From Rhodoblastus sphagnicola (GTDB taxonomy: Bacteria; Pseudomonadota; Alphaproteobacteria; Rhizobiales; Beijerinckiaceae), in NCBI RefSeq assembly GCF_002937075.1, contig NZ_NHSJ01000096.1:1-64000 (forward strand): a stretch of 64,000 nt of DNA, in the 5' to 3' direction. The notes beneath the pieces were generated by a model. That model was given only the letters and a program-made list of their open reading frames with translations, had not been told where the DNA came from and did no database searches. Positions 15,862 through 40,204 of this stretch are shown here, piece by piece (within the stretch, counting starts at the first letter, position 1; every line of letters begins with the position of its first letter). A program made the translations under genes and the position numbers.

Positions 15862-15942
15862 TCAGTGGTGATAGAGCAAGGCGATGACGATGATCACTGG
15901 AATTGGCACGCCCAGCAGCCAGAGCAAAATTCCGCGTCCCAT
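15862..15942 (-). CDS. 26-residue membrane microprotein next to dps (copy A)
   Basis: The minus strand encodes a single hydrophobic helix beginning MGRGILLWLLGVPIPVII and ending in two histidines. A near-identical 25-residue protein lies in the same place beside the second dps (29135-29212). Keeping start, length, GVPIP motif and gene order in both copies makes chance unlikely. It is 44 bases downstream of dps and just before the terminator, so it is probably cotranscribed with dps. AGGAGGACATTACAC upstream of the ATG supplies a strong ribosome binding site. Function unknown. Confidence 0.8.
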   Translation of the reverse strand: MGRGILLWLLGVPIPVIIVIALLYHH

Positions 15943-15986
15943 GTGTAATGTCCTCCTGCTTCCGGTGAAAGATCGCGCCGTCGGGA

Positions 15987-16484
15987 TCACGCCTTGGTGA
16001 CGATCGCCCGCAACATCCAGATGGTCTTTTCATGCCAGTCCATCCGCGCCACCAGCATGTCGTGGGTGACGATGTCTTTCTTGTCCTCGGCCTTGATCGC
16101 GATCTCGCGCATGTCGCGCACACAGGCTTCGTGGTCGGCGATCAAATCGAACACGATCGCCTCGCCGCTCATCGCCTGCGCGTCGGGCTTGATGGCGACC
16201 TTGGGAATCGGCGTCAGAAAGCCGAGGGCGCGAATGCGTTCGGCATAGACGTCGACCGCCTCGAACAGCGCCTTGTATTGGTCCTCGAGCATGATATGCA
16301 GCGGATGAAACAAGGGCCCGACGACATTCCAGTGATGGACATGGGTCTTCAACAGCAAGCTGTAGGCCGCGCTTAAAATATCTCCGAGCGCGTCGGAAAT
16401 CTCTTTGCGGGTGGACGTTTCGAGGCCGGACTTCGGCGTTTCGGCGTGCGGCTTTGACGCAAGAACCGTAGCTGTCTTGTTCAT
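15987..16484 (-). CDS. dps: Dps-family DNA protection ferritin (copy A)
   Basis: Forms dodecamers that oxidise iron with peroxide and shield DNA. The 165-residue product has ILSAAYSLLLKTHVHHWNVVG, the ferroxidase helix LFHPLHIMLEDQYKALFEAV and MREIAIKAEDKKDIVTHDML. The ATG at 16484 has GGAG 8 bases upstream, exactly as in the second dps; the longer frame to 16616 covers the promoter and is rejected. A GGAAC-N16-CGTT promoter ends 70 bases before the ATG. The microprotein follows. Confidence 0.93.
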   Translation of the reverse strand: MNKTATVLASKPHAETPKSGLETSTRKEISDALGDILSAAYSLLLKTHVHHWNVVGPLFHPLHIMLEDQYKALFEAVDVYAERIRALGFLTPIPKVAIKPDAQAMSGEAIVFDLIADHEACVRDMREIAIKAEDKKDIVTHDMLVARMDWHEKTIWMLRAIVTKA

Positions 16485-16553
16485 GTTAAACTCCAGATCG
16501 AGAGGGGTCGGCGCCGCCTGTCCTGTTGAAACGACATCCGGTTCCGCCAAGGC

Positions 16554-16578
16554 AACGGCGCCGCAGGACACAGGTTCC
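16554..16578 (-). promoter_or_regulatory. EcfG-type GSR promoter of dps (copy A)
   Basis: On the minus strand GGAAC (16578-16574), a 16-base spacer and CGTT (16557-16554), 70 bases before the dps ATG. The second dps has the same arrangement at the same distance. Confidence 0.88.
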
Positions 16579-16639
16579 GGGGTGGCGCTGAGAATAGTTT
16601 CTGTCGTCGCGGCCATGATCCCGGAACCTCCGCGCCGTC

Positions 16640-17019
16640 CTGGCGCCGGCGCGCTGTCCGAGTCGGACGAACGCTTGACGGAAGCGCTTCGATGCGCGGC
16701 GAAGGAGCCCTCTTCAGGAGATCAACGCGTTCAACATTTTGCCGGAAGTGGACTCCCGTCCGCGCAGTTTCCTGCTGACCCCTGACGCCGCCCATCGGGA
16801 GTGCTTCGTCACGTTCCGCCAGCGCGCGATCAGGTCGAGGCGCGGATGAGCAAACGCGAGGGGATCGACCGCAAATTTGCCTGATTGCAGCGGCGGTTAT
16901 GTTGTTTTCAAAGCGATCGCGACGGGTCTCGTCGGCGCGGCCAGTCCCGCCAACGCAAAGCGACCCACGCGCCCATCAAGGTCGAAACAGACGCGTCCGA
17001 TCATGACCTCTGTCTTCAA
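16640..17019. other. Intergenic region without a supported gene
   Basis: Between the dps promoter and the holin-like gene. Only short frames with no ribosome binding site are present. In copy B the equivalent place holds DUF1328, an ABC transporter and a phosphorelay operon. Confidence 0.5.
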
Positions 17020-17415
17020 TCAATCCGCTCTGTTCGACCTTGCCGCGAAATAGGCCGCGCCAGCCGCCGACGCGAGGCCGAACAGCTTGGCGTGCCGGGC
17101 GGCGAAGCCGAGGACATGCGGCGCCAGCACGACGACGGCGCTGGACTTCACCCAGGCGACCAAGCGCTCGGCCAATTTCCGCGCGATCATTTGTCCGATC
17201 AGTCCGACCGCCAAAGCCAGCAACAGACCGGCCCCGCCGATGGCGAGCGCCGCGCCGCGCGGATCGAGATAGGGAATGAGGCTCAGATAGGCGGCAAGGG
17301 CGCAAAAGATCACGCCGGCCCCGGCGAGCAGCGCCGAGACCGTTGCGCAGGCCAGCCCCAAGGCCATGCTTCTTGCAAAGCGGGGATCGCTGGACGACAG
17401 CGTCGATCCGCTCAT
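17020..17415 (-). CDS. Holin-like small membrane protein (copy A)
   Basis: A 131-residue protein with two long hydrophobic segments (CATVSALLAGAGVIFCALAAYL and AIGGAGLLLALAVGLIGQMI), then the amphipathic stretch SSAVVVLAPHVLGFAARHAK and a small hydrophobic tail. The plan resembles the 'phage holin family' or DUF1469-type proteins that often accompany DUF883 proteins; it is not a phage gene here. Its ATG overlaps the DUF883 stop (ATGA). The paralogue at 35154-35531 is 6 residues shorter. Probably acts at the inner membrane in stress; precise role unknown. Confidence 0.8.
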   Translation of the reverse strand: MSGSTLSSSDPRFARSMALGLACATVSALLAGAGVIFCALAAYLSLIPYLDPRGAALAIGGAGLLLALAVGLIGQMIARKLAERLVAWVKSSAVVVLAPHVLGFAARHAKLFGLASAAGAAYFAARSNRAD

Positions 17416-17729
17416 CGGCGGTCCCCGCGCGTGGCCAGACCAAACAGGAATCCGGCGCCGGCGGCGATGGCCAGGGCCGCGAACGGATTGGTGGCGACCG
17501 ACCTCGCCATATGGGCGGCGCCGCGCCCCATATAATCCTGCGCGCCATCCGACAGATCGTTCAACTGACCCGTGGCGTCGGCCGCGGCTTTTTTCGCCGC
17601 CGAGGCGGCGGTGTCGCGACCTTCCGCGGCGACCTTGGAAAAGTCGTCGATCGACGCCTTGATGGTTTTCACCGCATCATCGATGAGCGCGGCGAACAGT
17701 TCCTTTTCGGTCTTGAAATCTTCCGACAT
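17412..17729 (-). CDS. DUF883 (ElaB/YqjD/YgaM-type) protein (copy A, intact)
   Basis: A 105-residue protein: a long charged helix (MSEDFKTEKELFAALIDDAV onward, rich in Lys, Glu and Ala) and a C-terminal membrane anchor AALAIAAGAGFLFGLATRG. This is the DUF883 plan; E. coli YqjD and ElaB are anchored inner-membrane proteins that bind ribosomes in stationary phase. Translation is coupled to the holin-like gene by an ATGA overlap. The second copy (35528-35837) is frameshifted, so this may be the only working one. Confidence 0.85.
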   Translation of the reverse strand: MSEDFKTEKELFAALIDDAVKTIKASIDDFSKVAAEGRDTAASAAKKAAADATGQLNDLSDGAQDYMGRGAAHMARSVATNPFAALAIAAGAGFLFGLATRGDRR

Positions 17730-17905: not shown

Positions 17906-18337
17906 TTAAAGCGGCTGGGTCATGACCGCCCGCACGGGATAGGCGGCGGCGAAGAATTCGCCGCCGATGTCTTCCGGCGCATCGATTCCCATCAGCTCCA
18001 TCAGCCTCTGGCGGGCGCGGCTGACCCTGCTCTTGATCGCGCCTATGGCGCAATCGCAGATGACCGCCGCCTCCTCATAAGACACGCCGGAGGCGCCCAC
18101 CAGCAGGATGGCTTCACGCTGCTCCTCCGAAAGCCGGGCAAGCGCAATCTTCAGATCTTCGAGGTCGAGTCGGCCGCCCTGTTCGGGATGACTCATCATC
18201 CTGGACGCCTGTTCGCCATCGGTGTCCTGCGCCAGATCGTCGGCGCGGTCTGGCATGTTGGTGAGCGACAAGGCAAAAAAGAGCACCTGTTTCACTTCCG
18301 CAAGCAGGGCGGTCTTGAATTCGCCGGTGGGAGTCAG
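17906..18337 (-). pseudogene. ecfG: Degenerate EcfG sigma factor (copy A, 43-codon deletion)
   Basis: Aligned with the intact paralogue (35952-36512), this frame matches from the N-terminus (TPTGEFKTALLAE) to RADDLAQ, then jumps straight to DTDGEQAS. Residues 38-80 of the paralogue are missing, exactly 43 codons and in frame. The lost part holds region 2.2 and the -10 recognition segment (AWLFTIMRNTFYSDYRK). Region 4 is intact (REAILLVGASGVSYEEAAVI). In the paralogue the start is ATG inside the nepR stop; here the matching codon is CTG (18337-18335), leaving a GTG at 18295 as the next start. A normal sigma is very unlikely; the remnant could at most bind NepR or -35 DNA. The deletion lies between two short CAGGA(G/T)AC repeats of the paralogue. 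Confidence 0.85.
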
Positions 18338-18564
18338 GGTTGGACCTCGCTGGCGTCGTGCGTGCGTTGACCCCTGACCGCCCCTGGCGCGTCAACGCCT
18401 TCGACTCCCGCCTGTTCCAACTGGTCGAGCAGGCTGGCGAAACGGTCGGGAATTGCGGTCATCTCGGTTTCGGCAAACAGCAGCTTCAGTCTGTCGCCAA
18501 GATGAAGTCGCAGTTTTTCGTTAAGCGGGGGTGGGCTTGCGGGTGGTTCCTGCTTGCTTTCCAT
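18334..18564 (-). CDS. nepR: NepR anti-sigma factor (copy A)
   Basis: Short anti-sigma factor that holds EcfG until phosphorylated PhyR displaces it. The conserved core NEKLRLHLGDRLKLLFAETE and IPDRFASLLDQLE is present. The start at 18564 (MESKQEPP) matches the paralogue; an ATG nine bases upstream is also in frame. The stop overlaps the first codon of the damaged ecfG. The unit starts from a divergent EcfG promoter shared with phyR. Confidence 0.9.
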   Translation of the reverse strand: MESKQEPPASPPPLNEKLRLHLGDRLKLLFAETEMTAIPDRFASLLDQLEQAGVEGVDAPGAVRGQRTHDASEVQP

Positions 18565-18660
18565 GATTTTCACGTCATTTCATGATGCGGTCGCGGCAAA
18601 ACTCCGGCTTGGGAGCGGTTTTTTGGGAGCGGCTCCTGCGAGCTTGCCTTTCCATCAAGC

Positions 18661-18685
18661 AACGCGGCCGGCTTTGCCCTGTTCC
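18661..18685 (-). promoter_or_regulatory. EcfG-type promoter of nepR-ecfG (copy A)
   Basis: On the minus strand GGAAC (18685-18681), 16-base spacer, CGTT (18664-18661), about 100 bases before nepR. It implies autoregulation. Confidence 0.88.
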
Positions 18686-18702: not shown

Positions 18703-18727
18703 GGAACCTGAAACCTCATCACACGTT
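18703..18727 (+). promoter_or_regulatory. EcfG-type promoter of phyR (copy A)
   Basis: GGAAC (18703-18707), 16-base spacer, CGTT (18724-18727), 87 bases before phyR, and back to back with the nepR promoter. Confidence 0.88.
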
Positions 18728-18813: not shown

Positions 18814-19611
18814 ATGACGCTTTCCGAGATTGTCGCCCCGCAACTGCCTTTCCTGCGTCGCTATTCACGCGCCGTGAGCGGGAGTCAGACCAGCGGCGAC
18901 GCCTATGTCGTCGCCATGCTCGAAGCTCTGATCGAAGACCCGTCCCTGTTCGACCAGCGACTCAATGCGCGCACGGCCGTCTACAAGCTGTTTTCCCGGA
19001 TCTGGAACGCCATGCCGCTGAATGGCGAGACCGCGTCCTCGTCCAGCACGGGCGCGGAGCGCCGGTTGGAAGACATCACGCCGCTGCCGCGCCAGGCCTT
19101 CCTGCTCACCGCCGTGGAGGGTTTCTCGGCGGAACAGGGGGCGAGAATTCTGGATATGGACCTCGCCAAATTCTCCAGGCTGGTCGAAAACGCCAGCCGC
19201 GAAATCAGCGCGCAGGTCGCCACATCGGTGCTGGTCATCGAGGACGAGCCGATCATCGCCATGGATTTGGAAAATCTGGTCAGGGAACTGGGCCACAAGG
19301 TCGCCGGCAACGCCCGCACACGCGGCGAAGCCGTGGAAATGGCCAATCGCCTGAAGCCCGGCCTCGTTCTCGCCGACGTCAGGCTGGCCGACGGCAGTTC
19401 GGGGCTCGACGCCGTCCACGACATTCTCAGGAGCTTCCAAGTGCCGGTGATTTTCATCACCGCCTATCCTGAAAGCCTGCTGACCGGCGAGCGCCCGGAA
19501 CCGACCTTCCTCATTGCCAAGCCTTTCGAGGAAGACGTGGTGCGCGCCGTGATCAGCCAGGCCTTGTTCTTCAACACCAAGGCTGAAAGGAGCGAAGCCA
19601 GCGCCGCCTGA
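18814..19611 (+). CDS. phyR: PhyR anti-anti-sigma response regulator (copy A)
   Basis: Master switch of the alphaproteobacterial general stress response. Residues ~1-130 form a sigma-like domain (APQLPFLRRYSRAVSGSQTS, then ITPLPRQAFLLTAVEGFSAE) that mimics EcfG and binds NepR; residues ~140-255 are a receiver with VLVIEDEPIIAMD, the phosphoacceptor in VLADVRLADGSSG and IAKPFEED. 265 residues, the same length as the paralogue at 37045-37842. Followed at 137 bases by an HWE kinase that may phosphorylate it. Confidence 0.93.
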   Translation: MTLSEIVAPQLPFLRRYSRAVSGSQTSGDAYVVAMLEALIEDPSLFDQRLNARTAVYKLFSRIWNAMPLNGETASSSSTGAERRLEDITPLPRQAFLLTAVEGFSAEQGARILDMDLAKFSRLVENASREISAQVATSVLVIEDEPIIAMDLENLVRELGHKVAGNARTRGEAVEMANRLKPGLVLADVRLADGSSGLDAVHDILRSFQVPVIFITAYPESLLTGERPEPTFLIAKPFEEDVVRAVISQALFFNTKAERSEASAA

Positions 19612-19747: not shown

Positions 19748-21166
19748 ATGCGGTTTGTGTCGGATATTGCAGTCGGGTTGGCTTGCCTGTCTGCAGCGCT
19801 TGCCCTGAGTTACTATATCCACAAGCGCAGCAGCGTCGAGGAACTTGCCCGGCAAACAAGCCGGATCGCCATTATTGGCTTTCTCGCGTTCGGGGCGTCT
19901 CACCTTGTCGATGTCCTCACCCTGTTCTGGCGCGGCGTGGCGTGGCTGGATTTTATTCAGGCCGCCGCGCTCGGTGTGGCGCTGACCGCCTCTCTGGCCA
20001 TCTGGGGGTTGCTGCCCGCTCTGCTGGCGGAGCCCTCGCCCGGCGAATTGCTGGAAGCCAACAGGGCGCTCAGCGGGGCGACAGCGCGTCGCGCCGAGGA
20101 ATTGGCCCGCCTCGCCGCCGCCAAGGCCGATTTGGAGCGCGCCGTCGCCGAACGCACGCAGGCGCTCGACGAAGCCAAGCAGCGCTTCGAAAATGCGTTG
20201 AAAAATTCTGACATTTCCATGTCCCAGCAGGATACGGACCTGCGATATCTCTGGGTGCATAACGCCCCCAAAGGCCTGCCCGCCGCAGTCCTGCTCGGTC
20301 GCCTGCAACAAGACGTGCTTCCGGCGCGGGCCGACATGGTTCTGACCGCCGCCAAGCGCGGCGTCATGGCCAGCAAGGCGGCGAACAGTCTGGATCTCGA
20401 GATGGAGATCGACGGCGACACCCGCTATTTCCACGAAAACATCGAAGCGTTGTGGCGCGATGGCGAAGTCGTCGGCGTGCTCACGACCTCGATCGAAACC
20501 ACCGCCTACCATCGCCGGCAGGAGGAACTGCGGGCGCTGTTGCGCGAACTGACCCATCGCACCAAGAACCTGCTGGCGGTGATCATGGGCATAGCCCGGC
20601 AATCCGGGCGTTCGTCCACCGACATCGCAACCTTTGTCGCGCATTTCAACGGTCGCATCCGCGCGCTGGCGGTGACGCATGAATTGCTGGTGGCGTCGCA
20701 ATGGCGGGGCGTTGGGTTGCGCGAGCTGATCGCCGGAGTCTGGAAATCGACGAGCCCGGAAGCCCAGCAACGCATGGCGCTGACCGGGGAGAATTACTGG
20801 CTGGCGCCGGAGAGCGCGCAAAATCTCGCGCTTGCGATCTATGAAATGCAGAGCAACGCCATTGAGCACGGCGGACTTCTGGCCCCCGGCGGCAGCGTGA
20901 AAATAGCCTGGGCCGAGGAAAAAAACCAGGCCGGTCCTTTCGTGAAACTGACGTGGGAGGAAAACAGTCCACAAGCTTCGGCCAATGACAACCGGGGCGA
21001 TGGTTTTGGAAAGACCTTCGTGCAGGTCTTGCTGCCCCGCGCCACCAAGGGAAGTAGCACGATCGAATCGCACGACCGGGGTTTGAACTGGACCTTGACA
21101 TTGCCGCCGGTGAATTTCGTCTCAGGCGTTTGCGGATTGCGACGCGATCTGGCGGAAACCGCATGA
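19748..21166 (+). CDS. HWE-family sensor histidine kinase next to phyR (copy A)
   Basis: A 472-residue membrane kinase. Three hydrophobic segments in the first ~95 residues (from MRFVSDIAVGLACLSAALAL to AIWGLLPALL) are followed by a coiled coil (ARRAEELARLAAAKADLERA), a PAS-like domain (NSDISMSQQDTDLRYLWVHN) and the HWE dimerisation helix with LTHRTKNLLAVIMGIARQSG (H is the acceptor). The ATPase part has ALAIYEMQSNAIEHGGLL. The ATG at 19748 has GGCAGGAA upstream and matches the paralogue start (MRFVSDIA). Position suggests a PhyK-like role for PhyR, by inference. Confidence 0.88.
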   Translation: MRFVSDIAVGLACLSAALALSYYIHKRSSVEELARQTSRIAIIGFLAFGASHLVDVLTLFWRGVAWLDFIQAAALGVALTASLAIWGLLPALLAEPSPGELLEANRALSGATARRAEELARLAAAKADLERAVAERTQALDEAKQRFENALKNSDISMSQQDTDLRYLWVHNAPKGLPAAVLLGRLQQDVLPARADMVLTAAKRGVMASKAANSLDLEMEIDGDTRYFHENIEALWRDGEVVGVLTTSIETTAYHRRQEELRALLRELTHRTKNLLAVIMGIARQSGRSSTDIATFVAHFNGRIRALAVTHELLVASQWRGVGLRELIAGVWKSTSPEAQQRMALTGENYWLAPESAQNLALAIYEMQSNAIEHGGLLAPGGSVKIAWAEEKNQAGPFVKLTWEENSPQASANDNRGDGFGKTFVQVLLPRATKGSSTIESHDRGLNWTLTLPPVNFVSGVCGLRRDLAETA

Positions 21167-21482
21167 TAGGGTCCGCCCGCATTCGCCCTGAGCGGAGCGC
21201 ACAGCATTGACGTCTGCCGCCAAAACAAAAACCCGCCTCAGGGCGGAGCAAGCCAATTCCGTGAAATTTATTCCCATAAGAGCGACGACATACGCGCTAA
21301 AATAAGAGCTGCAACAAAGTATCTGCGCTTGGCTTGGGGAGATCATCATCATTGTGAAAGCCACGCGGCTGCTTGCGCCCTGTGGAAGCGTCCGAGGACA
21401 GACCGTTATTCGCCCGGACTCTATTGACATGAAGCAGTCCTGATTTTCCCCAAGACCAAATGAACCCGGAAAGGATGACACC
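21167..21482. other. Intergenic region upstream of csbD (copy A)
   Basis: No gene seen. A short inverted repeat (CCGCC-TCA-GGGCGG near 21230) with an adjacent A-run could stop minus-strand transcripts. No GGAAC box is present here, unlike the equivalent place in copy B. Confidence 0.4.
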
Positions 21483-21641
21483 ATGTCCAGCACCGTCGCC
21501 AATGTCTCCGGCGTCGGCAATGAAATCGTCGGCAAGGGCAAGCAGGCCATCGGCAAGGCCACTGACAACAAGAAGCCCCATGCCGAAGGCGTCGTGCAGG
21601 AAGCCAAGGACGGCGTGAGAAACGTCATCGACAAGGCGTAA
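21483..21641 (+). CDS. CsbD-family stress protein (copy A, 52 aa)
   Basis: A 52-residue, Lys/Gly/Ala-rich protein beginning MSSTVANVSGVGNEIVGKGK with repeated KGKQAIGKATDNK and HAEGVVQEAKDGV segments, the CsbD pattern. AAGGATGACACC before the ATG carries the ribosome binding site, as in the paralogue at 40013. CsbD proteins are induced by general stress in many bacteria; mechanism unknown. A hairpin terminator follows. Confidence 0.88.
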   Translation: MSSTVANVSGVGNEIVGKGKQAIGKATDNKKPHAEGVVQEAKDGVRNVIDKA

Positions 21642-29823: not shown

Positions 29824-29848
29824 AACGAAGACAAGGAAACCATGTTCC
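29824..29848 (-). promoter_or_regulatory. EcfG-type GSR promoter of dps (copy B)
   Basis: On the minus strand GGAAC (29848-29844), 16-base spacer, CGTT (29827-29824), 70 bases before the dps ATG. Confidence 0.88.
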
Positions 29849-32101: not shown

Positions 32102-33607
32102 ATGCGTCGTAATCGCAAGGAAATACTCAGCATTTCGACGCTGATCGCGACGGCGGCGTCTCTGATTCTGATCGCGATCGTTTATGGCGCCTATGTCTTT
32201 TCGGAACGCAGCGGCGCGCTGTCGCAATCGGCCTTCGATGTCAGCTTCTCCGAATTGCGCCTGAGCCGCGCCTTCAACATTCTGCTCGAAGCGGAATCGA
32301 GCCAACGCGGATTTCTTCTGACTCACGACGCCTCCTACTTGCAACCGTTCCTCACCTATCGCCAGCGCGCCGGCGCCGAACTGGATCACGCCGAAGAGCA
32401 GATGAAGCAGCTCGACATGGTCGGCTCGGCGCCGGCGCTGGCGCAATTGCGCGAGGTCATCGAAGCCAAATTGACCGAACTCGACCAGACCGTCGCCATG
32501 GGCGCCGCAGGCGAGATGGATCAGGCGCGCGCAGTGGTGCGCGGCAATGTCGGTCGCGACCTGATGAGCCAGGCGCGCGACATCGTGTCGGACAAATTGC
32601 GCCAGCTCGCCAACCTGCGCGCGGAACGCGTCGCCGACGCGCAGGCCAACGCCGCGCGCCTGACGACCCTGACCACGATAGGCGTGTTCAGCGTGGTGCT
32701 GCTGTCCCTCGTCGGCGTGGCGCAAGTCTATTCCTATTCCGCCGACCTCGCCGGCGCGCAAGACAAACTCGCCACCATAAATGACGCGCTGGAACGGCGA
32801 GTCGCCGAGCGCACGCGCAGTCTCCAGACCGCCAATGAGGAAATCCAGCGCTACGCCTATATTGTCAGCCACGATTTGCGCGCGCCGCTGGTCAACATCA
32901 TCGGCTTCGCCAAGGAGCTGGCCGCAAGCGTCAAGAGCATCGCGCCGGCGCTGGACTTGCCGTCGCCCGCTGGCGACGGCCCCGTGATCGCGCAGGCGCG
33001 GCTAGCGGTGAAGGAGGATATTCCCGAAGCGCTCAAATTCATCGACGCCTCGACAACACGCATGGACAATTTGATCAACGCCATTCTCAGCCTGTCGCGC
33101 CTTGGCCGGCTGCCACTGCTGCCGCAGGACATCGATCTTGCGGCTCTGACCGAGCGTTGCGTCGCATCCCTCCAGCACCGGCTCAATGACGCCGGCGCGC
33201 GCGTCGCCATCGAAGGGCGTTTGCCGCGGATGATCGGCGACCAGCAGGCGCTCGAACAGATCATTGGCAATCTCCTCGACAATGCCGCAAAATATCTCGC
33301 GCCGGAGCGTTCCGGGCGTCTTCTCGTGCGCGGCAGGCGCGCGGGGCCGCAGGTGGTGATTGAGGTCGAGGACAATGGCCGGGGCGTCGCCCCAGGCGAT
33401 CATGAACGGATCTTTGAATTGTTCCGCCGCGCGGGCAAGCAGGATCGCGCGGGCGATGGAATCGGCCTCGCCCATGTGCGCAGCCTCGTGCGGCGGCTGG
33501 GGGGTGAAATCGCCGTGACATCGGATGGCGAATCTGGCTGCACATTTACAGTCACGCTGCCTGCGGACCTGCGTCGCGCCATGGCGGAAGGCTATGTGAA
33601 TGCGTGA
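32102..33607 (+). CDS. CHASE3-type sensor histidine kinase
   Basis: A 501-residue membrane kinase: TM1 STLIATAASLILIAIVYGAY, a periplasmic CHASE3-like helical domain with ESSQRGFLLTHDASYLQPFL, TM2 TTIGVFSVVLLSLVGVAQV near residue 200, coiled coil, and the acceptor helix YAYIVSHDLRAPLVNIIGFA. The ATPase domain has ALEQIIGNLLDNAAKYLAPE and DGIGLAHVRSLVRRLGG. The architecture is that of kinases paired with Rcp1-type single receivers, and such a gene overlaps its 3' end by 8 bases. Likely feeds the GSR locus next door; this link is inferred from position. Confidence 0.88.
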   Translation: MRRNRKEILSISTLIATAASLILIAIVYGAYVFSERSGALSQSAFDVSFSELRLSRAFNILLEAESSQRGFLLTHDASYLQPFLTYRQRAGAELDHAEEQMKQLDMVGSAPALAQLREVIEAKLTELDQTVAMGAAGEMDQARAVVRGNVGRDLMSQARDIVSDKLRQLANLRAERVADAQANAARLTTLTTIGVFSVVLLSLVGVAQVYSYSADLAGAQDKLATINDALERRVAERTRSLQTANEEIQRYAYIVSHDLRAPLVNIIGFAKELAASVKSIAPALDLPSPAGDGPVIAQARLAVKEDIPEALKFIDASTTRMDNLINAILSLSRLGRLPLLPQDIDLAALTERCVASLQHRLNDAGARVAIEGRLPRMIGDQQALEQIIGNLLDNAAKYLAPERSGRLLVRGRRAGPQVVIEVEDNGRGVAPGDHERIFELFRRAGKQDRAGDGIGLAHVRSLVRRLGGEIAVTSDGESGCTFTVTLPADLRRAMAEGYVNA

Positions 33608-34043
33608 TCCCAACCCGCCCGTGATGATCGTGATGATCGAGGACGACGACGGTCACGCGCGACTGATCGAAAAGAACATCCGCCGCGCGGGCGGGCGCCA
33701 TGAAATTCTCCGCTTCGCCACCGGCGCGGCGGCGCTTGATTTCCTCCTTGGCGGCGGCGCGACCCGGCCGCGTTCGCCGCGCGCGCGGCTGATTCTGCTC
33801 GACCTCAATCTGCCCGACATGACCGGCTTGGACATTCTCGCCCGGCTCAAGGCCGATGAGCGCGCCAGGCGCTTGCCGGTGATCGTTCTGACCACCTCGA
33901 ACGACAAACGGGACATCGAGAAATGCTATGATCTCGGCGCCAGCGTCTATATGATCAAACCGCCCAATTACGACAGTTTCGCCAACGCCATCCAGCAGCT
34001 TGGGCTGTATCCGGCGGCAATCCAAGCGCCGGAGACGATCTGA
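33600..34043 (+). CDS. Rcp1-type single-domain response regulator
   Basis: A 147-residue receiver without an output domain. VMIVMIEDDDGHARLIEKNI carries the acidic cluster, LILLDLNLPDMTGLDILARL the phosphoacceptor and VIVLTTSNDKRDI the Thr; the KP motif is IKPP. Overlaps the preceding kinase gene and ends 2 bases before the next gene, so translation is coupled. Confidence 0.92.
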   Translation: MRDPNPPVMIVMIEDDDGHARLIEKNIRRAGGRHEILRFATGAAALDFLLGGGATRPRSPRARLILLDLNLPDMTGLDILARLKADERARRLPVIVLTTSNDKRDIEKCYDLGASVYMIKPPNYDSFANAIQQLGLYPAAIQAPETI

Positions 34044-34045: not shown

Positions 34046-35140
34046 ATGCCCTATGGCGCCGAATTCCGCAGCGGTCTCAAAATCCTGTTCGTCGATGACG
34101 ACGACGCCTTCGCTTTTCTGGTGCGGAAAGGGCTGACCAGACGCGGCCATGAGGTGGAAACAGCCGCGAGCGGCGATGGCGCGCTGGAGCGCATCGCTCA
34201 GGGCGGCATAGATGTCATCTCGCTGGATCATTCGCTGATTGGCGAGACCGGATTTGATGTTCTCGCGCGCCTCGGGCCGCGCGGATCGCGCGCGCCCGTC
34301 GTCTATGTCACCGGCGATTCCGACGCGCGCACGGCGGTGGCCGCCCTGCGCGCCGGCGCTGACGAATATGTGATCAAGGACGCCGGCCCGGAATTTTTCG
34401 AATTGCTGATCGCCGCCATCGAGCAGGTTTACGAGCGCTGGCGGCTCAAGAAACAACGCGAGGAGCAGGAGCGCGTCGTGCGCGAGGCGCGGGATCGCGC
34501 CGAGGCCCTGTTGCAAGAGGTCAGTCACCGAATTTCCAACAGTCTCAGCCTGGTGGTCGGCATGGTGCGCATGCAGGCCTCCACGCTGACCGATCCCTCG
34601 GCGGTCAACGCGCTACAGGAAACGCAGTCGCGCCTGATGGCCATCGCCGGCGTCCATCGCCGGCTCTACATGCATCGGAAGATCGGCATGGTGGCGCTGG
34701 ACGATTATCTGAAATACCTGACCGAGGAATTGCAGGATACATTGCGCGATCAGGATCATCCCGTCGCCATCAATCTGGCGGCGGACCCCATCACCGTTTC
34801 CACCGACAGGGCCATTCCGATTGGCGTCATTGTCGGCGAATTGGCCACCAACGCCTATAAATACGCCTATCCGCCAAGAACGGCGGGAGAAGTCCGCGTG
34901 CTGCTGCGACAGGTGGATTCGGCGCGCGCCGAATTGCGGGTGGAAGACGACGGCGCCGGCTATGACGAAGCGGCCCGGGCGAAGGGGACGGGGCTGGGAT
35001 CGAAAATTCTCAAGGCGATGGCTCTGAATTTGCGCGGCGACATCACGAAGCACGATGTTGCGCGCGGCACATCCATCGGCGTGACTTTTTCTTTTGACGA
35101 TATTGAGTTTCGTCCAACAGGTTCAGCGCTCATAGCATGA
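34046..35140 (+). CDS. Hybrid receiver-HWE/HisKA_2 kinase
   Basis: A 364-residue soluble protein with receiver and kinase in reverse hybrid order. Residues ~10-125 are a receiver (ILFVDDDDAFAFLVRKGLTR, VISLDHSLIGETGFDVLARL, EYVIKDAGPEF). A coiled coil leads to the HisKA_2 helix EVSHRISNSLSLVVGMVRMQ and an ATPase domain with GVIVGELATNAYKYAYPP and GTGLGSKILKAMA. Such proteins form the third member of a CHASE3 kinase / Rcp1 receiver / receiver-HWE kinase relay in alphaproteobacteria; HWE kinases commonly target PhyR. Here phyR copy B lies 1.9 kb downstream. Confidence 0.9.
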   Translation: MPYGAEFRSGLKILFVDDDDAFAFLVRKGLTRRGHEVETAASGDGALERIAQGGIDVISLDHSLIGETGFDVLARLGPRGSRAPVVYVTGDSDARTAVAALRAGADEYVIKDAGPEFFELLIAAIEQVYERWRLKKQREEQERVVREARDRAEALLQEVSHRISNSLSLVVGMVRMQASTLTDPSAVNALQETQSRLMAIAGVHRRLYMHRKIGMVALDDYLKYLTEELQDTLRDQDHPVAINLAADPITVSTDRAIPIGVIVGELATNAYKYAYPPRTAGEVRVLLRQVDSARAELRVEDDGAGYDEAARAKGTGLGSKILKAMALNLRGDITKHDVARGTSIGVTFSFDDIEFRPTGSALIA

Positions 35141-35153: not shown

Positions 35154-35531
35154 TCAGCTTGCTCTTTTCGAGCGTGCGGCGAAAAACGCCGCGCCAGCCG
35201 CCGAGACGAGGCCGATAAGCTTGGCGTGACGGACGGCAAAGCCGAGAATATGGGGAGCCAGAGCGATCGGCGCGCTTGATTTCACCCAGGCCGTCAAACG
35301 TTGAACCGAATTCCAGACGATGATCCGGCCGATGAGACCGAGCAGGGCCGCCAGAACGAATGCCGCCCAATGCGGCTCCAGATGGGGCGACAGGCTGAGA
35401 TAGGCCGAGATTGCGCAGAAGATCAGGCCGGTCGCCGCGAACATCGCGGAGGCCAGACCACAGGCCACGCACAAAACCATGCTTTGCGCCACATGCAATT
35501 CAGCCGATGATGACGGCGAGGTCGGGCTCAT
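35154..35531 (-). CDS. Holin-like small membrane protein (copy B)
   Basis: 125 residues, paralogous to 17020-17415: hydrophobic segments ACGLASAMFAATGLIFCAIS and AAFVLAALLGLIGRIIVW, then SAPIALAPHILGFAVRHAK and the same VSAAGAAFFAARS tail. It converges on the hybrid kinase gene. The start overlaps the DUF883 stop (ATGA), but DUF883 is frameshifted here, so coupling may be weakened. Confidence 0.8.
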   Translation of the reverse strand: MSPTSPSSSAELHVAQSMVLCVACGLASAMFAATGLIFCAISAYLSLSPHLEPHWAAFVLAALLGLIGRIIVWNSVQRLTAWVKSSAPIALAPHILGFAVRHAKLIGLVSAAGAAFFAARSKRAS

Positions 35532-35837
35532 CCGCGCCCTCCGCGCGAGGCGCGGCCGAGCAGATATCCGGCGCCGGCGACAATGGCCAAAGCGGCGAGC
35601 GGGTTTTCAGAAACGGATTTGGCCAGATTGAGAGCGCCGCGCCCGACATAATCCTGGGCGCCCCCAGACCGATCCGTGAACTGGCTGGCGGCATCGGCGC
35701 CCGCCTTTTTCACCGCTGAAGCCGCTGTTGTCCGCCGCTGCCTTGGAAACGTCTTCGAGCGAGGCCTTGATGGCTTTCACGGCGTCGTTGATCGTCGCCG
35801 CAAATTGTTCCTGTTCCGCCTTGAAATTGTCCGACAT
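35528..35837 (-). pseudogene. Frameshifted DUF883 gene (copy B)
   Basis: Starts normally at 35837 (MSDNFKAEQEQFAATINDAV), matches copy A to KAAADN near 35730, then changes frame: the C-terminal half (VKKAGADAASQFTDRSGGAQ to LLGRASRG) lies in the neighbouring frame down to the stop at 35528. Two bases appear to be missing (or one added) relative to copy A. Without correction the membrane anchor is lost. A sequencing error cannot be excluded. Confidence 0.8.
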
Positions 35838-35951: not shown

Positions 35952-36512
35952 TCAGCCCGTCTGGGCCATGGCGACGCGCAAGGGATCGCCTGCCGCGAGG
36001 AATTCGCCGCCGATCTCTTCGGGCGCGTCAATGCCCATCAGTTCCATCAATTTTTGGCGGGCGCGATTGACGCGGCTCTTGATGGTGCCGACGGCGCAAT
36101 CGCAAATGGCGGCGGCCTCCTCATAGGAGACGCCCGAGGCGCCCACCAGCAGAATGGCCTCGCGGTGGTCTTCGGAAAGTTGCGCAAGCGCGATTTTCAG
36201 ATCTTGGAGATCAAGGCAACCACCCTGCTCAGGGTAGCTCATCAGCTTGGCGGCTTCTTCGCCATCCGTATCCTGAACCTCGCGCCGCGCCTTGCGATAA
36301 TCGGAATAGAAGGTGTTGCGCATGATGGTGAACAACCAGGCCCGGATCGAGGTTCCTTCTTGGAAACGATTCGACGCCGCCCAGGCCTTGATCAAGGTCT
36401 CCTGCACCAGATCGTCGGCGCGATCGGGCATATTGGTGAGCGACAGCGCGAAAAAGCGCAATTGCGCCACCTGGGCGAGCAAAGCCGTTTTGAATTCCGC
36501 CGTCGGAGTCAT
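35952..36512 (-). CDS. ecfG: EcfG general-stress sigma factor (copy B, intact)
   Basis: A 186-residue ECF15-type sigma factor. Region 2: FFALSLTNMPDRADDLVQET, then IKAWAASNRFQ and AWLFTIMRNTFYSDYRKARR; region 4: LSEDHREAILLVGASGVSYE and CDCAVGTIKSRVNRARQKLM. It directs RNA polymerase to GGAAC-N16-CGTT promoters. The ATG at 36512 overlaps the nepR stop (ATGA). This is the only complete EcfG in the window; the copy-A gene lacks 43 of these codons. Confidence 0.95.
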   Translation of the reverse strand: MTPTAEFKTALLAQVAQLRFFALSLTNMPDRADDLVQETLIKAWAASNRFQEGTSIRAWLFTIMRNTFYSDYRKARREVQDTDGEEAAKLMSYPEQGGCLDLQDLKIALAQLSEDHREAILLVGASGVSYEEAAAICDCAVGTIKSRVNRARQKLMELMGIDAPEEIGGEFLAAGDPLRVAMAQTG

Positions 36513-36739
36513 TTGCACGCCTCGCTGGAGTCATCGGCGCCATCATGCTTCGGCCCGTTGCGCGGTTGAACGCCCTTGAGGCCGACGCTTTCCAATTGGT
36601 CGAGCAAGCTGGCGAAACGATCCGGCATGGGACTGCGCGCCGTTTCGGCAAAAAGCATCTTCAGCTTGTCGCCCAGGTGCAATTGCAGTTTTTCTTCGAG
36701 CGGCGGCTTTTGAGCGGCGGGCTCCTGCGTTCTTTCCAT
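36509..36739 (-). CDS. nepR: NepR anti-sigma factor (copy B)
   Basis: A 76-residue anti-sigma factor with the core EEKLQLHLGDKLKMLFAETA and MPDRFASLLDQLES. The start at 36739 (MERTQEPAAQ) aligns with MESKQEPPAS of copy A; the longer frame to 36904 covers promoter sequence. The stop overlaps the ecfG start, coupling anti-sigma and sigma. Confidence 0.92.
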   Translation of the reverse strand: MERTQEPAAQKPPLEEKLQLHLGDKLKMLFAETARSPMPDRFASLLDQLESVGLKGVQPRNGPKHDGADDSSEACK

Positions 36740-36921: not shown

Positions 36922-36946
36922 AACGCCGGCGTCATCACTATGTTCC
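36922..36946 (-). promoter_or_regulatory. EcfG-type promoter of nepR-ecfG (copy B)
   Basis: On the minus strand GGAAC (36946-36942), 16-base spacer, CGTT (36925-36922). Positive autoregulation of the intact sigma gene is implied. Confidence 0.88.
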
Positions 36947-36963
36947 AAAAAACATTTTTCTTG

Positions 36964-37044: not shown

Positions 37045-37842
37045 ATGACGCTTTCGGCGCTTGTCGCCCCGCAACTTCCCTTTCTGCGCCGCTATGCCCG
37101 CGCCATGAGCGGCAGCCAGTCCAGCGGCGACGCCTATGTGGTCGCCATGCTCGAAGCCCTGATCGAAGATCCCACGCTTTTCGATTCCAGGCTTGACGCG
37201 CGCACGGCGGTTTACAAGGCTTTTTCGCGTATCTGGAACGCCATGCCGATAATTGGACGGGCTGACGCGCTTTCAAGTTCAGGGGCCGAGCGCCGCCTCG
37301 AACAGATCACGCCCCTGCCGCGGCAGGCATTCCTGCTGACGGCGGTGGAAGGTTTTTCGGCCGACCAGGCCGCTAAAGCGCTCGGCATGGATCTGGCGCA
37401 TTTCTCCAAACTGTTGGAAACCGCAGGCCGTGAGATCAGCGCGCAGGTCGCGACTTCTGTGCTGATCATTGAGGACGAGCCAATCATCGCTATGGATCTT
37501 GAGACTCTGGTCAAGGATCTCGGCCATGAATGCCTCGGCAACGCTCGAACCCGGGGCGAGGCGGTGGAAATGGCCCGCCGTCTGAGGCCTGGGCTGGTGC
37601 TTGCCGATATTCGTCTGGCCGATGGCAGTTCCGGCCTGGCGGCTGTGCATGACATTCTCGAATCCTTCGAGGTTCCCGTGATCTTCATCACCGCCTATCC
37701 GGAAAGCCTGTTAACCGGCGCGCGTCCGGAGCCGACTTTCCTGATCGCCAAGCCGTTCGAGGAAGACATGGTGCGCGCGGTGATCAGCCAGGCCCTGTTC
37801 TTCGACGCAAAGGCCGAGACGGAGGCCGTCAGCGCTTCATGA
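37045..37842 (+). CDS. phyR: PhyR anti-anti-sigma response regulator (copy B)
   Basis: 265 residues, collinear with copy A. Sigma-like domain: APQLPFLRRYARAMSGSQSS and LPRQAFLLTAVEGFSADQAA; receiver domain: VLIIEDEPIIAMDLETLVKD, phosphoacceptor in VLADIRLADGSSG, then FITAYPESLL and IAKPFEED. When phosphorylated it should bind NepR and free EcfG. Two PhyR proteins could integrate different kinases. The ATG at 37045 matches the copy-A start. Confidence 0.94.
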   Translation: MTLSALVAPQLPFLRRYARAMSGSQSSGDAYVVAMLEALIEDPTLFDSRLDARTAVYKAFSRIWNAMPIIGRADALSSSGAERRLEQITPLPRQAFLLTAVEGFSADQAAKALGMDLAHFSKLLETAGREISAQVATSVLIIEDEPIIAMDLETLVKDLGHECLGNARTRGEAVEMARRLRPGLVLADIRLADGSSGLAAVHDILESFEVPVIFITAYPESLLTGARPEPTFLIAKPFEEDMVRAVISQALFFDAKAETEAVSAS

Positions 37843-38017: not shown

Positions 38018-39442
38018 ATGCGGTTCGTTTCGGACATTGCGATAGGTTTGGCTTGCCTCTCCGCAGCCCTGGCCTTTCTCTCTTACGTCTTGCGGCGTCG
38101 CGGATTGGCGGGCCAATCCCGGCAGGTCGCCATCATCGCCATCGCCGGCCTGTTTGCTTTCAGCGCCTCACGTTTCACCGATACGGCCGCCCTCTATTTT
38201 CCCGATGAAGAATGGCTCGGCTACGGGAGTTTGGCGACCTTGTTTTTCGCATTGACCGCGTCGCTCGTTGTCTGGAGTGGGCTGCCGGCCCTGCTCGCCG
38301 AACCCTCGCCCGGCGAATTGATGGAAGCGAACAAGGCCCTGAGCGGCGCGGCCGAACTGCGAGCGGCGGAGGTTGCGCGACTCGCCGCGACCCAGGCCGA
38401 ATTGGAGCGCGCTGTGCGCGAACGCACACTGGCGCTGGATGAAGCCAATCAACGTTTCAAACTGGCTTTGCGCAACTCCGAGATCTCCATGGTCCAGCAG
38501 GACCGCGATCTCCGTTACATCTGGGTGCACAATGCGCCCAAGGGCATGGCGGCCGCGGACTTGCTCGGCCGGTTTCAGAAGGATGTTCTACCGGAACATG
38601 TCGACGCCCCGCTTGGGAGCGCCAAGCGCGGCGTCATGGCGAACGAGACGCCTGACAGTCTGGAATTCAGCATCGCGATCGGGGGCGTCACCCGCCATTT
38701 TCATGAAAATATCGAGCCCGTCTTGCGCGATGGCGCCGTCATCGGCGTTCTCGTCACGTCGATCGAAACGACATCCTATCGTCGCCAGCAGGACGAGTTG
38801 CGAGGACTGCTGCGCGAAGTCACCCACCGCACCAAGAATTTGCTCGCGGTCATCATGGGCATCGCGCGCCAATCCGGTCGCTCCTCCAAGGATGTTTCCA
38901 CCTTTGTCGCGCGTTTCAACGGCCGCATTCGCGCCCTTGCCGTCGCCCATGAGCTGCTGGTGGACTCCGAGTGGCGTGGCGTGGCGATACGAAGGCTGGT
39001 CTGGGGCGTCTGGAAGGCGGTCAGCCCGGAAACCTTGAACTTGCTCACGCTGGAGGGTGACGGCCCCGACCTGGCCCCGGAATGCGCGCAAAACCTCGCC
39101 CTGGCCCTTTATGAAATGCAAAGCAACGCCATTGAACATGGCGGATTGCTCGCGCCCGGCGGCGGCGTAAGAATTTGCTGGGCGACGTCCGAAGACGATC
39201 CAGACCTTGGCGTCAAAATGGTCTGGGAGGAAACGGGCCGTCCCTCCGCGCCAGCGCAAACCATCGGCTTCGGCAAGACCTATGTCCATGGTCTGCTGCC
39301 CCGCGCCACCAAGGGCCGCAGCGCCATGCACTTTCATGAAAATGGCCTGACATGGACGCTGACGCTGCCGCGGTCGAATTTTGTCGCTAACGCTGGCGCG
39401 CAGGGCGCCATCGCGAATAGAGCGCAGGGCGGCGCAAAGTAA
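38018..39442 (+). CDS. HWE-family sensor histidine kinase next to phyR (copy B)
   Basis: A 474-residue paralogue of the copy-A kinase: MRFVSDIAIGLACLSAALAF, two more hydrophobic segments to residue ~95, coiled coil with AARRLAATQ-like heptads, PAS-like NSEISMVQQDRDLRYIWVHN, and the HWE helix VTHRTKNLLAVIMGIARQSG. ATPase: ALALYEMQSNAIEHGGLLAP. The membrane region is where the paralogues differ most, so the two may sense different signals while sharing PhyR as likely target. Confidence 0.88.
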   Translation: MRFVSDIAIGLACLSAALAFLSYVLRRRGLAGQSRQVAIIAIAGLFAFSASRFTDTAALYFPDEEWLGYGSLATLFFALTASLVVWSGLPALLAEPSPGELMEANKALSGAAELRAAEVARLAATQAELERAVRERTLALDEANQRFKLALRNSEISMVQQDRDLRYIWVHNAPKGMAAADLLGRFQKDVLPEHVDAPLGSAKRGVMANETPDSLEFSIAIGGVTRHFHENIEPVLRDGAVIGVLVTSIETTSYRRQQDELRGLLREVTHRTKNLLAVIMGIARQSGRSSKDVSTFVARFNGRIRALAVAHELLVDSEWRGVAIRRLVWGVWKAVSPETLNLLTLEGDGPDLAPECAQNLALALYEMQSNAIEHGGLLAPGGGVRICWATSEDDPDLGVKMVWEETGRPSAPAQTIGFGKTYVHGLLPRATKGRSAMHFHENGLTWTLTLPRSNFVANAGAQGAIANRAQGGAK

Positions 39443-39457
39443 AAAACGCGCCCACGG

Positions 39458-39482
39458 GGAACAACATAATGACGCCTGCGTT
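39458..39482 (+). promoter_or_regulatory. EcfG-type GSR promoter of the PRC-barrel and csbD genes
   Basis: GGAAC (39458-39462), 16-base spacer, CGTT (39479-39482), 75 bases before the PRC-barrel start. Confidence 0.87.
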
Positions 39483-39556
39483 GTTTTGAAAGGAACGGCG
39501 ATCTTCAAGCTTCACGGCAAGCGCAAAGACGATCGGCGCTCCCCCTCAAGGAGATC

Positions 39557-39967
39557 ATGATGAACACCAAGGCTATCCTTGGCGCTTGCGCGCTATTGTC
39601 GGTCGCTGCCCTTTCGACCGCCGTCTTCGCTGAGCCGAAGCTAACGGCGGGCGAAACCAATGTGCTGACTAGCCAGGGCGCGAGTGACGTTCTCGCGAGC
39701 ACGATCGTCGGCGCGACCGTCTATTCGCCCCGCGATGAAAAGGTCGGCGACATTCAATATCTGGTCATGAACAAGGACGGCAAGATCGAAGGCGCGGTGA
39801 TCGGCGTTGGCGGCTTCCTCGGCGTCGCCAAAAAGGACGTCGCCCTCAACTTCAAAGCGCTGACCATTTCTTACGACACCGACAATTCGGTGAAGAAGAT
39901 CACGGCCGACGTCACCAAGGACGGGCTCAAATCCGCCCCGGACTATCTGTTCCTGAAGAAGTCCTGA
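39557..39967 (+). CDS. Secreted PRC-barrel protein
   Basis: A 136-residue protein with a signal peptide (ILGACALLSVAALSTAVFAE) and a PRC-barrel domain (ASTIVGATVYSPRDEKVGDI, KIEGAVIGVGGFLGVAKKDV). AAGGAG precedes two adjacent ATGs (39557 and 39560); the second has better spacing. PRC-barrel proteins of this length are common stress genes of Rhizobiales; function unknown. Shares its EcfG promoter with csbD 45 bases downstream. Confidence 0.88.
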   Translation: MMNTKAILGACALLSVAALSTAVFAEPKLTAGETNVLTSQGASDVLASTIVGATVYSPRDEKVGDIQYLVMNKDGKIEGAVIGVGGFLGVAKKDVALNFKALTISYDTDNSVKKITADVTKDGLKSAPDYLFLKKS

Positions 39968-40012
39968 TTTTTTGCAACACCAACCGAACCCCAAGATCGA
40001 AGGATGAAAACC

Positions 40013-40204
40013 ATGTCCAGCACCACTGACAAGATCGCCGGCGTCGCCAATGAAATCGCCGGCAAGGGCAAGCAAGCTCTCGGCAAGGCTGTGGATGACA
40101 AGGGGCTTCAAGCCGAAGGCGTGGCGCAGGAAGCCAAGGGCGAACTCCAGAAGGCCGCCGGCAAGGCCAAGGACGCGGTGAAAAAGGTCGTCGACAACGC
40201 CTGA
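40013..40204 (+). CDS. CsbD-family stress protein (copy B, 63 aa)
   Basis: Begins [20 protein letters not shown] and continues with [20 protein letters not shown] and [20 protein letters not shown], the complete CsbD pattern, longer than copy A by 11 residues at the C-terminus. The ATG at 40013 has GAAGGA at proper spacing; the ATG at 40004 is too close to it. Confidence 0.9.

What the first reader, a model, noticed from the sequence alone, without database searches (positions are those of the whole stretch)
15862..40204. Collinear segmental duplication of a whole general-stress block
The order microprotein, dps, holin-like, DUF883, ecfG, nepR (all minus), then phyR, HWE kinase, csbD (all plus) appears at 15.86-21.64 kb and again at 29.13-40.20 kb. 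Overlaps (ATGA between DUF883 and holin-like, and between nepR and ecfG), promoter spacing and start sites are kept. Copy B gained DUF1328, an ABC transporter, a phosphorelay operon and a PRC-barrel gene. Multiple GSR paralogues are known in Rhizobiales; a full tandem block including dps and a microprotein is less usual. I infer an old duplication followed by divergence.
Basis: partly seen in the sequence, partly recalled or inferred. Interest (0 to 1): 0.78.

Follow-up and report, generated by a model that had tools for sequence, protein, structure and literature searches.

The report
Duplicated stress-control locus, one copy decayed
A bacterium related to Rhodoblastus acidophilus carries two old copies of the same stress-response control locus, and one copy has lost the DNA-reading half of its master switch protein, so the pair shows how a spare control circuit is pared down after duplication.

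Summary
The two blocks are real: nine collinear gene pairs. The six gene trees built each join A with B: kinase, EcfG, NepR and DUF883 with good support, PhyR and Dps with less. An old duplication is therefore supported. (1) B did not 'gain' DUF1328, the phosphorelay operon or the PRC gene: relatives carry them in like positions, and A keeps remnants of the phosphorelay kinase and probably of PRC. Only the ABC transporter looks inserted in B. (2) The nepR/ecfG ATGA overlap is not kept: A starts ecfG with CTG. (3) ecfG_A lacks 43 in-frame codons, most of sigma region 2. B's DUF883 is frameshifted. So A is a kinase-PhyR-NepR unit without a usable sigma factor of its own; B is the complete switch. 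The remaining EcfG_A codons evolved under strong constraint (omega 0.06, averaged over the branch), so the deletion is late or the sigma4 remnant still does something. Duplicated general-stress regulators are well known; this decay pattern is the new part. Interest is moderate.

The parts
15862..15942 (-). A: 26-aa microprotein after dps
   Evidence: sequence; 80-88% identical homologues beside dps in L038, L043, L048; no NCBIfam match
15987..16484 (-). A: dps
   Evidence: Pfam Ferritin; 66% identical to B
16554..16578 (-). A: EcfG-type promoter-like site of dps (GGAAC-N16-CGTT)
16706..16828 (+). A: remnant of the CHASE3 histidine kinase gene that is intact in B
   Evidence: tblastn 54% over 41 aa, 42.7 bits, E 2e-10 (search of this stretch alone); best of 200 shuffles 26.2 bits
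17020..17415 (-). A: membrane protein ('holin-like')
   Evidence: 56% over 125 aa to B; no Pfam or NCBIfam match
17412..17729 (-). A: DUF883 protein, intact frame
   Evidence: (DUF883_C, 17.3 bits, below cut-off 27)
17906..18337 (-). A: ecfG lacking 43 codons of sigma region 2; CTG start
18216..18238 (-). A: deletion junction in ecfG (DLAQ/DTDG)
18334..18564 (-). A: nepR
   Evidence: Pfam NepR
18661..18685 (-). A: EcfG-type promoter-like site before nepR-ecfG
18703..18727 (+). A: EcfG-type promoter-like site before phyR
18814..19611 (+). A: phyR
   Evidence: PhyR_sigma2, PhyR_sigma-like, Response_reg; NCBIfam PhyR over cut-off
19748..21166 (+). A: HWE histidine kinase (ETR1_N-like membrane part, PAS, HWE)
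21413..21443 (+). A: probable remnant of the 3' end of the PRC-barrel gene before csbD
   Evidence: blastn 76% over 55 nt (31 nt of PRC plus csbD leader), 41.9 bits; best of 300 shuffles 26.5; no protein-level match by tblastn
21483..21641 (+). A: csbD, 52 aa
   Evidence: Pfam CsbD 31.7 bits, below cut-off 40
29135..29212 (-). B: 25-aa microprotein after dps
29257..29754 (-). B: dps
29824..29848 (-). B: EcfG-type promoter-like site of dps
29962..30129 (+). B: DUF1328
30208..32064 (+). B: ABC transporter (SbmA/BacA-like), apparently inserted between DUF1328 and the kinase (start codon uncertain)
   Evidence: absent from that interval in L040, L043, L047, L048
32099..33607 (+). B: CHASE3 histidine kinase (start codon uncertain)
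33600..34043 (+). B: single-domain response regulator
34046..35140 (+). B: receiver-HisKA_2/HWE kinase
35154..35531 (-). B: membrane protein ('holin-like')
35528..35837 (-). B: DUF883, frameshifted by an 8-nt deletion relative to A
35952..36512 (-). B: ecfG, intact (sigma2 and sigma4)
36509..36739 (-). B: nepR (start chosen by alignment with A)
36922..36946 (-). B: EcfG-type promoter-like site before nepR-ecfG
37045..37842 (+). B: phyR
38018..39442 (+). B: HWE histidine kinase
39458..39482 (+). B: EcfG-type promoter-like site before the PRC gene
39557..39967 (+). B: PRC-barrel protein
40004..40204 (+). B: csbD, 66 aa

Best explanation
An accessory general-stress-response locus (microprotein-dps, DUF1328, CHASE3 kinase, regulator, receiver-HWE kinase, membrane protein, DUF883, ecfG-nepR, phyR-HWE kinase, PRC, csbD) was duplicated long ago in the lineage of this Rhodoblastus-like genome. 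The copies then decayed unequally. B stays a complete partner switch: its kinase phosphorylates PhyR_B, which takes NepR_B away from EcfG_B, and EcfG_B reads GGAAC-N16-CGTT promoters. A lost DUF1328, the phosphorelay operon and the PRC gene. Its ecfG lost the ATG and, by recombination between built-in short repeats (V-Q-D/E-T codons 129 nt apart), the core and -10 binding part of sigma region 2. A therefore keeps kinase_A, PhyR_A and NepR_A but no usable sigma factor. It most likely acts as an extra input and buffer on the sigma factors coded elsewhere (EcfG_B and the C103 copy), with EcfG_A a recent loss of function. Shown: homology, trees, the deletion, the remnants, promoter-like sites. Inferred: the direction of signal flow, cross-talk of NepR_A and PhyR_A with other EcfG proteins, the repeat mechanism, and loss of EcfG_A activity.
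For: Nine collinear pairs. A+B sisters in the six trees built; separating them in favour of the kind-2 loci or of L040 is rejected for PhyR+kinase (AU p 0.002-0.016). Five of 10 accessory loci elsewhere in the genus hold phosphorelay and/or DUF1328 genes that A lacks, one of them also PRC. Remnants in A of the kinase and probably PRC. ecfG_A lacks Pfam Sigma70_r2 while ecfG_B has it at 56.8 bits; the 11 other EcfG rows aligned with it keep the 43 residues. The two 12-nt repeats lie exactly 129 nt apart in the 17 ecfG genes (of 22 rows examined) in which the motif was found, matching at 6-10 of 12 positions. AlphaFold2 with the same 12 sequences: EcfG_B sigma2 pLDDT 75-89; EcfG_A before the junction 35-46, sigma4 about 73-83. 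11 GGAAC-N16-CGTT sites in the window against 1.15 expected. PhyR_A and kinase_A are under constraint (omega 0.061 and 0.083; omega 1 rejected). PhyR A-B identity 81.1%, like canonical PhyR between this genome and R. acidophilus (79.5-83.3%), hence old.
Against: The kept EcfG_A codons show omega 0.058 on the A branch, and omega 1 is rejected (2dlnL 33.8), so no relaxed selection is visible in the gene said to be dying. NepR_A, which this reading keeps as active, has omega 0.68, not distinguishable from 1 (2dlnL 0.07), on only 74 codons in an analysis that was unstable for other branches. A sits at the AI-2E transporter/Peptidase_Mx site that R. acidophilus uses for another paralogue type, and this genome's own PhyR of that type is an orphan elsewhere, so relocation or gene conversion took part. 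PhyR support for A+B is only 94/76. A 50% identical ABC transporter gene stands about 1.8 kb from ecfG in L058, another genus, so the ABC gene may not be wholly new to such loci. No expression or binding data exist.
Confidence: 0.7

Rival explanations
1. EcfG_A is a retained sigma4-only protein that binds NepR (or RNA polymerase) without promoter melting, acting as a decoy that lowers free NepR or dampens EcfG output.
For: In-frame deletion, no stop codons, strong constraint on the kept codons in both parts: omega 0.063 before and 0.053 after the junction. The Shine-Dalgarno-like GAGG keeps its 7-nt distance to the CTG. Promoter-like site before nepR-ecfG kept. The sigma4 fold is predicted.
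Against: The constraint is an average over the whole branch and would look the same if the deletion is recent. ATG became CTG. No second example: of 397 genomes of the order, 1 (this one) has the exact junction in an EcfG, and 0 of 122 phyR loci is sigma4-only. A review says the PhyR-NepR complex superimposes on an anti-sigma complex that embraces both sigma2 and sigma4 (PMC4598750, passages), so sigma4 alone should bind weakly.
Confidence: 0.15
2. The two loci are independent, older paralogues made alike by gene conversion rather than a segmental duplicate pair.
For: A occupies the site of a different paralogue type in R. acidophilus. Divergence differs by gene (PhyR 81%, kinase 63-64%, NepR about 53%).
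Against: The six genes tested give the same sister pair, small and non-core ones included (DUF883, Dps), and leaders and gene order match. No tract of unusually high identity was seen: the long blastn tracts are at most 78%, one 57-nt tract 81%.
Confidence: 0.15
3. Each block was acquired independently from different lineages.
For: The accessory PhyR of G004 and G006 group with A/B (weakly, 88/84 and 84/81), although R. acidophilus is the closer species by RpoB, so an ancestor of A/B may itself have come by transfer.
Against: A and B are sisters in the six trees built; pairing A or B with L040 or with the kind-2 loci is rejected for PhyR+kinase (AU p 0.002-0.016).
Confidence: 0.05

Closest known systems
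Alphaproteobacterial general stress response partner switch (PhyR-NepR-EcfG), canonical locus
   Same: ecfG-nepR operon divergent from phyR, 4-bp nepR/ecfG overlap, GGAAC-N16-CGTT promoters, HWE kinase beside a phyR (described in PMC4814048 and PMC7083833, passages read)
   Different: Two diverged full blocks 7.5 kb apart with dps, microprotein and csbD; copy A lacks sigma region 2 in its ecfG
Methylobacterium extorquens multiple EcfG/NepR (PMC4814048, passages including parts of the abstract)
   Same: Lineage-specific expansion; NepR paralogues that bind PhyR with no sigma partner detected, proposed as an extra layer of control
   Different: There no ecfG lies at the phyR locus; here a whole block is paired and a sigma factor is truncated
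Sphingopyxis granuli TFA EcfG1/EcfG2, two nepR and two phyR (PMC7083833, passages)
   Same: Two phyR and two nepR in one genome; csbD, catalases and an HWE kinase are GSR targets
   Different: Both sigma factors were studied as active there; the second nepR-phyR pair lies apart from the two ecfG genes
Rubellimicrobium thermophilum PhyR/PhyR' (PMC12148442, passages)
   Same: Paralogous PhyR proteins with different kinase and NepR behaviour
   Different: A single NepR; no block duplication described in the passages read
Rhizobium etli EcfG1/EcfG2 (PMC3892343, passages)
   Same: Old ecfG duplication with diversification
   Different: Concerns the sigma factor; the paper says there is generally one PhyR-NepR pair per genome

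Membership tests
EcfG-type ECF sigma factor (copy A gene) | sigma region 2 (core and -10 binding) | tested here: not met
   No Sigma70_r2 match; 43 codons absent
EcfG-type ECF sigma factor (copy A gene) | sigma region 4 | tested here: met
   Sigma70_r4_2 E 1.2e-13; fold predicted
EcfG-type ECF sigma factor (copy A gene) | overlap with nepR, divergent from phyR | tested here: met
   Coordinates; overlap is CTGA
EcfG-type ECF sigma factor (copy A gene) | activates GGAAC-N16-CGTT promoters | not testable with these tools
   Needs transcription assay
EcfG-type ECF sigma factor (copy B gene) | both sigma regions, nepR/phyR neighbourhood | tested here: met
NepR anti-sigma factor (A and B) | NepR core over Pfam cut-off | tested here: met
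   32.1 and 33.3 bits, cut-off 25.7
PhyR (A and B) | sigma-like domain plus receiver with phospho-acceptor Asp | tested here: met
   Domains shown for A, B by 81% identity; Asp188, taken by recall as the acceptor, is invariant in the 10 aligned rows, B included
Segmental duplicate pair | collinear order and sister position in each gene tree | tested here: met
   Six genes of nine; csbD, microprotein and membrane-protein trees not built
Holin | holin family profile | tested here: not met
   No Pfam match for A (B not tried); no NCBIfam match for A or B

The most novel reading that the evidence does not exclude
EcfG_A is a selected sigma4-only regulator: a sigma factor turned, by deletion between its own built-in repeats, into a decoy for NepR, so that block A tunes the stress response set by block B.
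Probability: 0.12. Interest if true: 0.6.

Novelty: new variant of a known kind. Interest (0 to 1): 0.38.

Why it matters
It gives a case, roughly dated by comparison with relatives, of a whole stress-control circuit duplicated and then reduced, with the sigma factor losing its DNA-melting half while kinase, PhyR and NepR stay. If EcfG_A is expressed, it would test directly whether sigma4 alone can bind NepR and whether a sigma-less copy of the switch still affects the response. The repeat pair flanking most of sigma region 2 in ecfG genes also suggests a simple route by which such truncations arise.

Tried and rejected
Independent origin of A and B: rejected by trees and AU tests. The first AU test (p 0.0017) held A with kind-2 loci and also G006 L045, which confounds two questions; cleaner tests are (A with kind 2 only, p 0.016; B with kind 2 only, p 0.016; A with L040, p 0.002; B with L040, p 0.003; PhyR alone, A with kind 2, p 0.019). 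All these groups were named after trees had been seen.

'B gained the phosphorelay and PRC': rejected by relatives and remnants. Convergent sigma2 loss elsewhere: the junction pattern matched in 10 of 397 genomes of the order (11 matches); at the ten matches outside this genome the reading frame is not EcfG, and the only EcfG_B similarity in those loci is a weak one away from the junction in L153 (E 0.006). Other deletion end points were not searched. Of 122 phyR loci, 103 have sigma2+sigma4 within 3 kb, 1 sigma2 only (L045), 0 sigma4 only, 18 none. At least eight places are in that set twice (L060/L037, L061/L050, L062/L047, L063/L043, L065/L038, L069/L052, L018/L059, L019/L058), and the window's own loci are not in it. 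Branch omegas for dps, nepR and the membrane-protein gene are unreliable (for example 19 for dps A and 20 for nepR B); nepR A 0.68 is reported as evidence against, dps and membrane-protein values are not used.

Mistakes of mine: (and the lists) the dps_A query was out of frame; corrected. The first RpoB tree used antisense ORFs for three genomes; redone. The first EcfG tree was distorted by the truncated L045 and left A and B unresolved; redone without L045, L058 and L059. Rows dropped: NepR tree without L058, L059; DUF883 tree without L037; Dps tree without the truncated G001 copy L171 and the distant L167. Trees for csbD, the microprotein and the membrane protein were not built. Paper searches 'EcfG' + 'pseudogene' (7 listed), 'EcfG' + 'truncated' + 'region 2' and two more terms (1 listed), 'lacking region 2' with two more terms (none) and 'Rhodoblastus' + 'general stress response' (none): none of the listed titles is about a sigma2-less EcfG; those papers were seen as listings only, and subscription papers are not covered.


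Full report
SETTING. The window lies on contig C96 of an unnamed 5.09-Mb genome. Its genus group has 11 held genomes, this one included. Contig lengths identify three of the others as Rhodoblastus acidophilus (DSM 142, DSM 137, MO) and one as Rhodoblastus sp. 17X3. By RpoB the window genome groups with the three R. acidophilus genomes (100/99*, about 96% identity), while G004 and G006 lie outside. It has three NepR genes over the Pfam cut-off, four PhyR (A, B, an orphan on C34, and a canonical one on C103) and four EcfG-like matches (B, canonical C103, C106, and the shortened A).

OBSERVATION. tblastx, blastn and blastp show collinear matches for microprotein, dps, membrane protein, DUF883, ecfG, nepR, phyR, kinase and csbD. 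The order and strands are as described. The dps promoter-like site has the same distance to the ATG in both copies. The window holds 11 GGAAC-N16-CGTT sites against 1.15 expected from shuffles, a consensus given for EcfG promoters in PMC7083833 (passages read); one of the 11 lies inside nepR_A and may be chance. At nepR the spacing differs between copies, and the nepR/ecfG junction is ATGA in B but CTGA in A.

THE HIDDEN DIFFERENCE. EcfG_A reads ...DRADDLAQ|DTDGEQ... where B and the ten other aligned EcfG rows have 43 further residues. They cover most of sigma region 2: Pfam finds Sigma70_r2 in B (56.8 bits) and none in A, while region 4 scores alike in both (50.9 and 50.2 bits). In intact genes the ends of the lost piece carry similar 12-mers (codons for V-Q-D/E-T and, mostly, V-Q-D-T/V) exactly 129 nt apart: 17 of the 22 rows examined have the motif, and the 12-mers match at 6 to 10 positions (9 in B, 10 in G004). 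This fits deletion between short direct repeats. With the same 12 sequences, AlphaFold2 gives EcfG_B a confident sigma2 and sigma4 (mean pLDDT 70), but EcfG_A only a sigma4 (mean 55). The core- and -10-binding role of region 2 is textbook knowledge, not tested here.

SELECTION. A codon model on seven sequences (143 codons kept in A) gives omega 0.058 on the A branch; omega 1 is rejected (2dlnL 33.8), and the parts before and after the junction behave alike (0.063 and 0.053). This is a branch average. It says that the gene was under constraint for most of its separate history; it cannot tell a recent deletion from a still useful remnant. PhyR_A (0.061) and kinase_A (0.083) are constrained too; NepR_A gives 0.68, not distinguishable from 1, on 74 codons.

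WHICH COPY CHANGED. In relatives, accessory PhyR loci come in kinds. Kind 1 (G001 L038, G005 L043, G008 L048) has dps (only its second half in L038) with microprotein, regulator genes, DUF883, ecfG-nepR, phyR and csbD without the HWE kinase; DUF1328 is seen in L043 and L048, and the CHASE3 kinase in L038 and L043. G008 L047 is similar, without a dps match. Kind 2 (L037, L042, L050) has AI-2E transporter, membrane protein, phyR and HWE kinase with no ecfG or nepR; DUF883 was seen in two of the three. G004 L040 has DUF1328, phosphorelay, ecfG-nepR, phyR, kinase, PRC and csbD together. So 5 of these 10 accessory loci (with L045 and L036 counted) carry the genes that A lacks, and DUF1328, the phosphorelay and PRC most simply predate A and B. 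A keeps a 41-aa piece of the CHASE3 kinase gene between dps and the membrane-protein gene (E 2e-10; 42.7 bits against 26.2 for the best of 200 shuffles) and probably the 3' end of the PRC gene before csbD (41.9 bits against 26.5 for the best of 300 shuffles; 31 of the 55 nt are PRC, the rest csbD leader, and tblastn with the PRC protein found nothing). Only the ABC transporter, absent between DUF1328 and the kinase or regulators in L040, L043, L047 and L048, looks like a B insertion; a 50% identical ABC gene does stand about 1.8 kb from ecfG in L058, a different genus and position. B in turn has a frameshifted DUF883.

TREES AND AGE. A and B are sisters in EcfG (97/92*), NepR (96/92*, long branches), kinase (99/99*), DUF883 nucleotides (100/100*), PhyR (94/76) and Dps (93/99); a first EcfG tree holding the truncated L045 left them unresolved. 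For PhyR+kinase, A with kind 2 (p 0.016), B with kind 2 (0.016), A with L040 (0.002) and B with L040 (0.003) are rejected by AU tests; for PhyR alone, A with kind 2 (0.019). PhyR A-B identity (81.1%) is like that of canonical PhyR between this genome and R. acidophilus (79.5-83.3%), and lower than for the kind-2 PhyR (86-87%): the duplication is about as old as, or older than, that species split, if rates are alike.

WHAT DOES NOT FIT. A stands between an AI-2E transporter and a Peptidase_Mx gene, as kind 2 does in G008, yet its genes belong with B. This genome's own kind-2 PhyR is alone on C34 beside what I read (recall, no search) as phosphate-transport genes. Relocation, replacement or conversion must have played a part.

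A SECOND BROKEN SIGMA. In G006 the ecfG of the corresponding locus keeps sigma2 and loses sigma4, and its kinase has an internal TGA. Together with the ecfG-less kind-2 loci, the sigma gene is missing or damaged in 5 of the 7 loci that carry this HWE kinase in 11 genomes (damaged: A, G006; absent: G001, G005, G008; whole: B, G004).

MECHANISM. B can run the standard switch. A can still pass a signal from kinase_A to PhyR_A and NepR_A, under EcfG-type promoters, but must act on sigma factors coded elsewhere. Such layering has precedents: Methylobacterium NepR paralogues that bind PhyR without a detected sigma partner, and Sinorhizobium paralogues cited in the same paper (PMC4814048, passages). 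EcfG_A is most simply a late loss; the decoy reading is open.

NOVELTY. Paralogous GSR regulators and ecfG duplications are well documented (PMC4814048, PMC3892343, PMC7083833, PMC12148442; passages read). I saw no report of a sigma2-less EcfG in the listings of searches, which cover open papers only.

Noticed in passing
19748-21166 and 38018-39442: Both HWE kinases start with a segment matching Pfam ETR1_N (ethylene-receptor-like membrane part): over the cut-off in A (32.9 bits), just below it in B (25.1). By recall the ethylene receptor needs a Cys and a His there; A seems to keep only the His.
   Followed up: no
L045 (G006), about 8678-11565: ecfG truncated after sigma2 (no sigma4) and kinase with one internal TGA: a second, opposite decay of the sigma gene in an accessory locus.
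   Followed up: partly
L036, 9477-10283: Orphan PhyR of the R. acidophilus kind-2 clade with no nepR, ecfG or HWE-kinase match within the 19.5 kb taken, next to what look like phosphate-transport genes.
   Followed up: partly
L038, 15384-15581: In G001 only the second half of dps matches in frame, while the microprotein beside it is kept.
   Followed up: no
10375-10399, 26970-26994, 29031-29055: Further GGAAC-N16-CGTT sites before DUF2383, DUF4142 and a small glycine-rich ORF: the window is rich in likely general-stress genes.
   Followed up: no
46020-58457: 4145-aa filamentous-haemagglutinin-like protein with TPS domain and DUF3739.
   Followed up: no
15862-15942 and 29135-29212: 25-26-aa membrane-like microprotein directly after dps, conserved beside dps in three R. 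acidophilus genomes (80-88%), with no NCBIfam match.
   Followed up: partly
44701-45929: Two overlapping ORFs that look like an IS3-type transposase (recall from sequence, no search).
   Followed up: no
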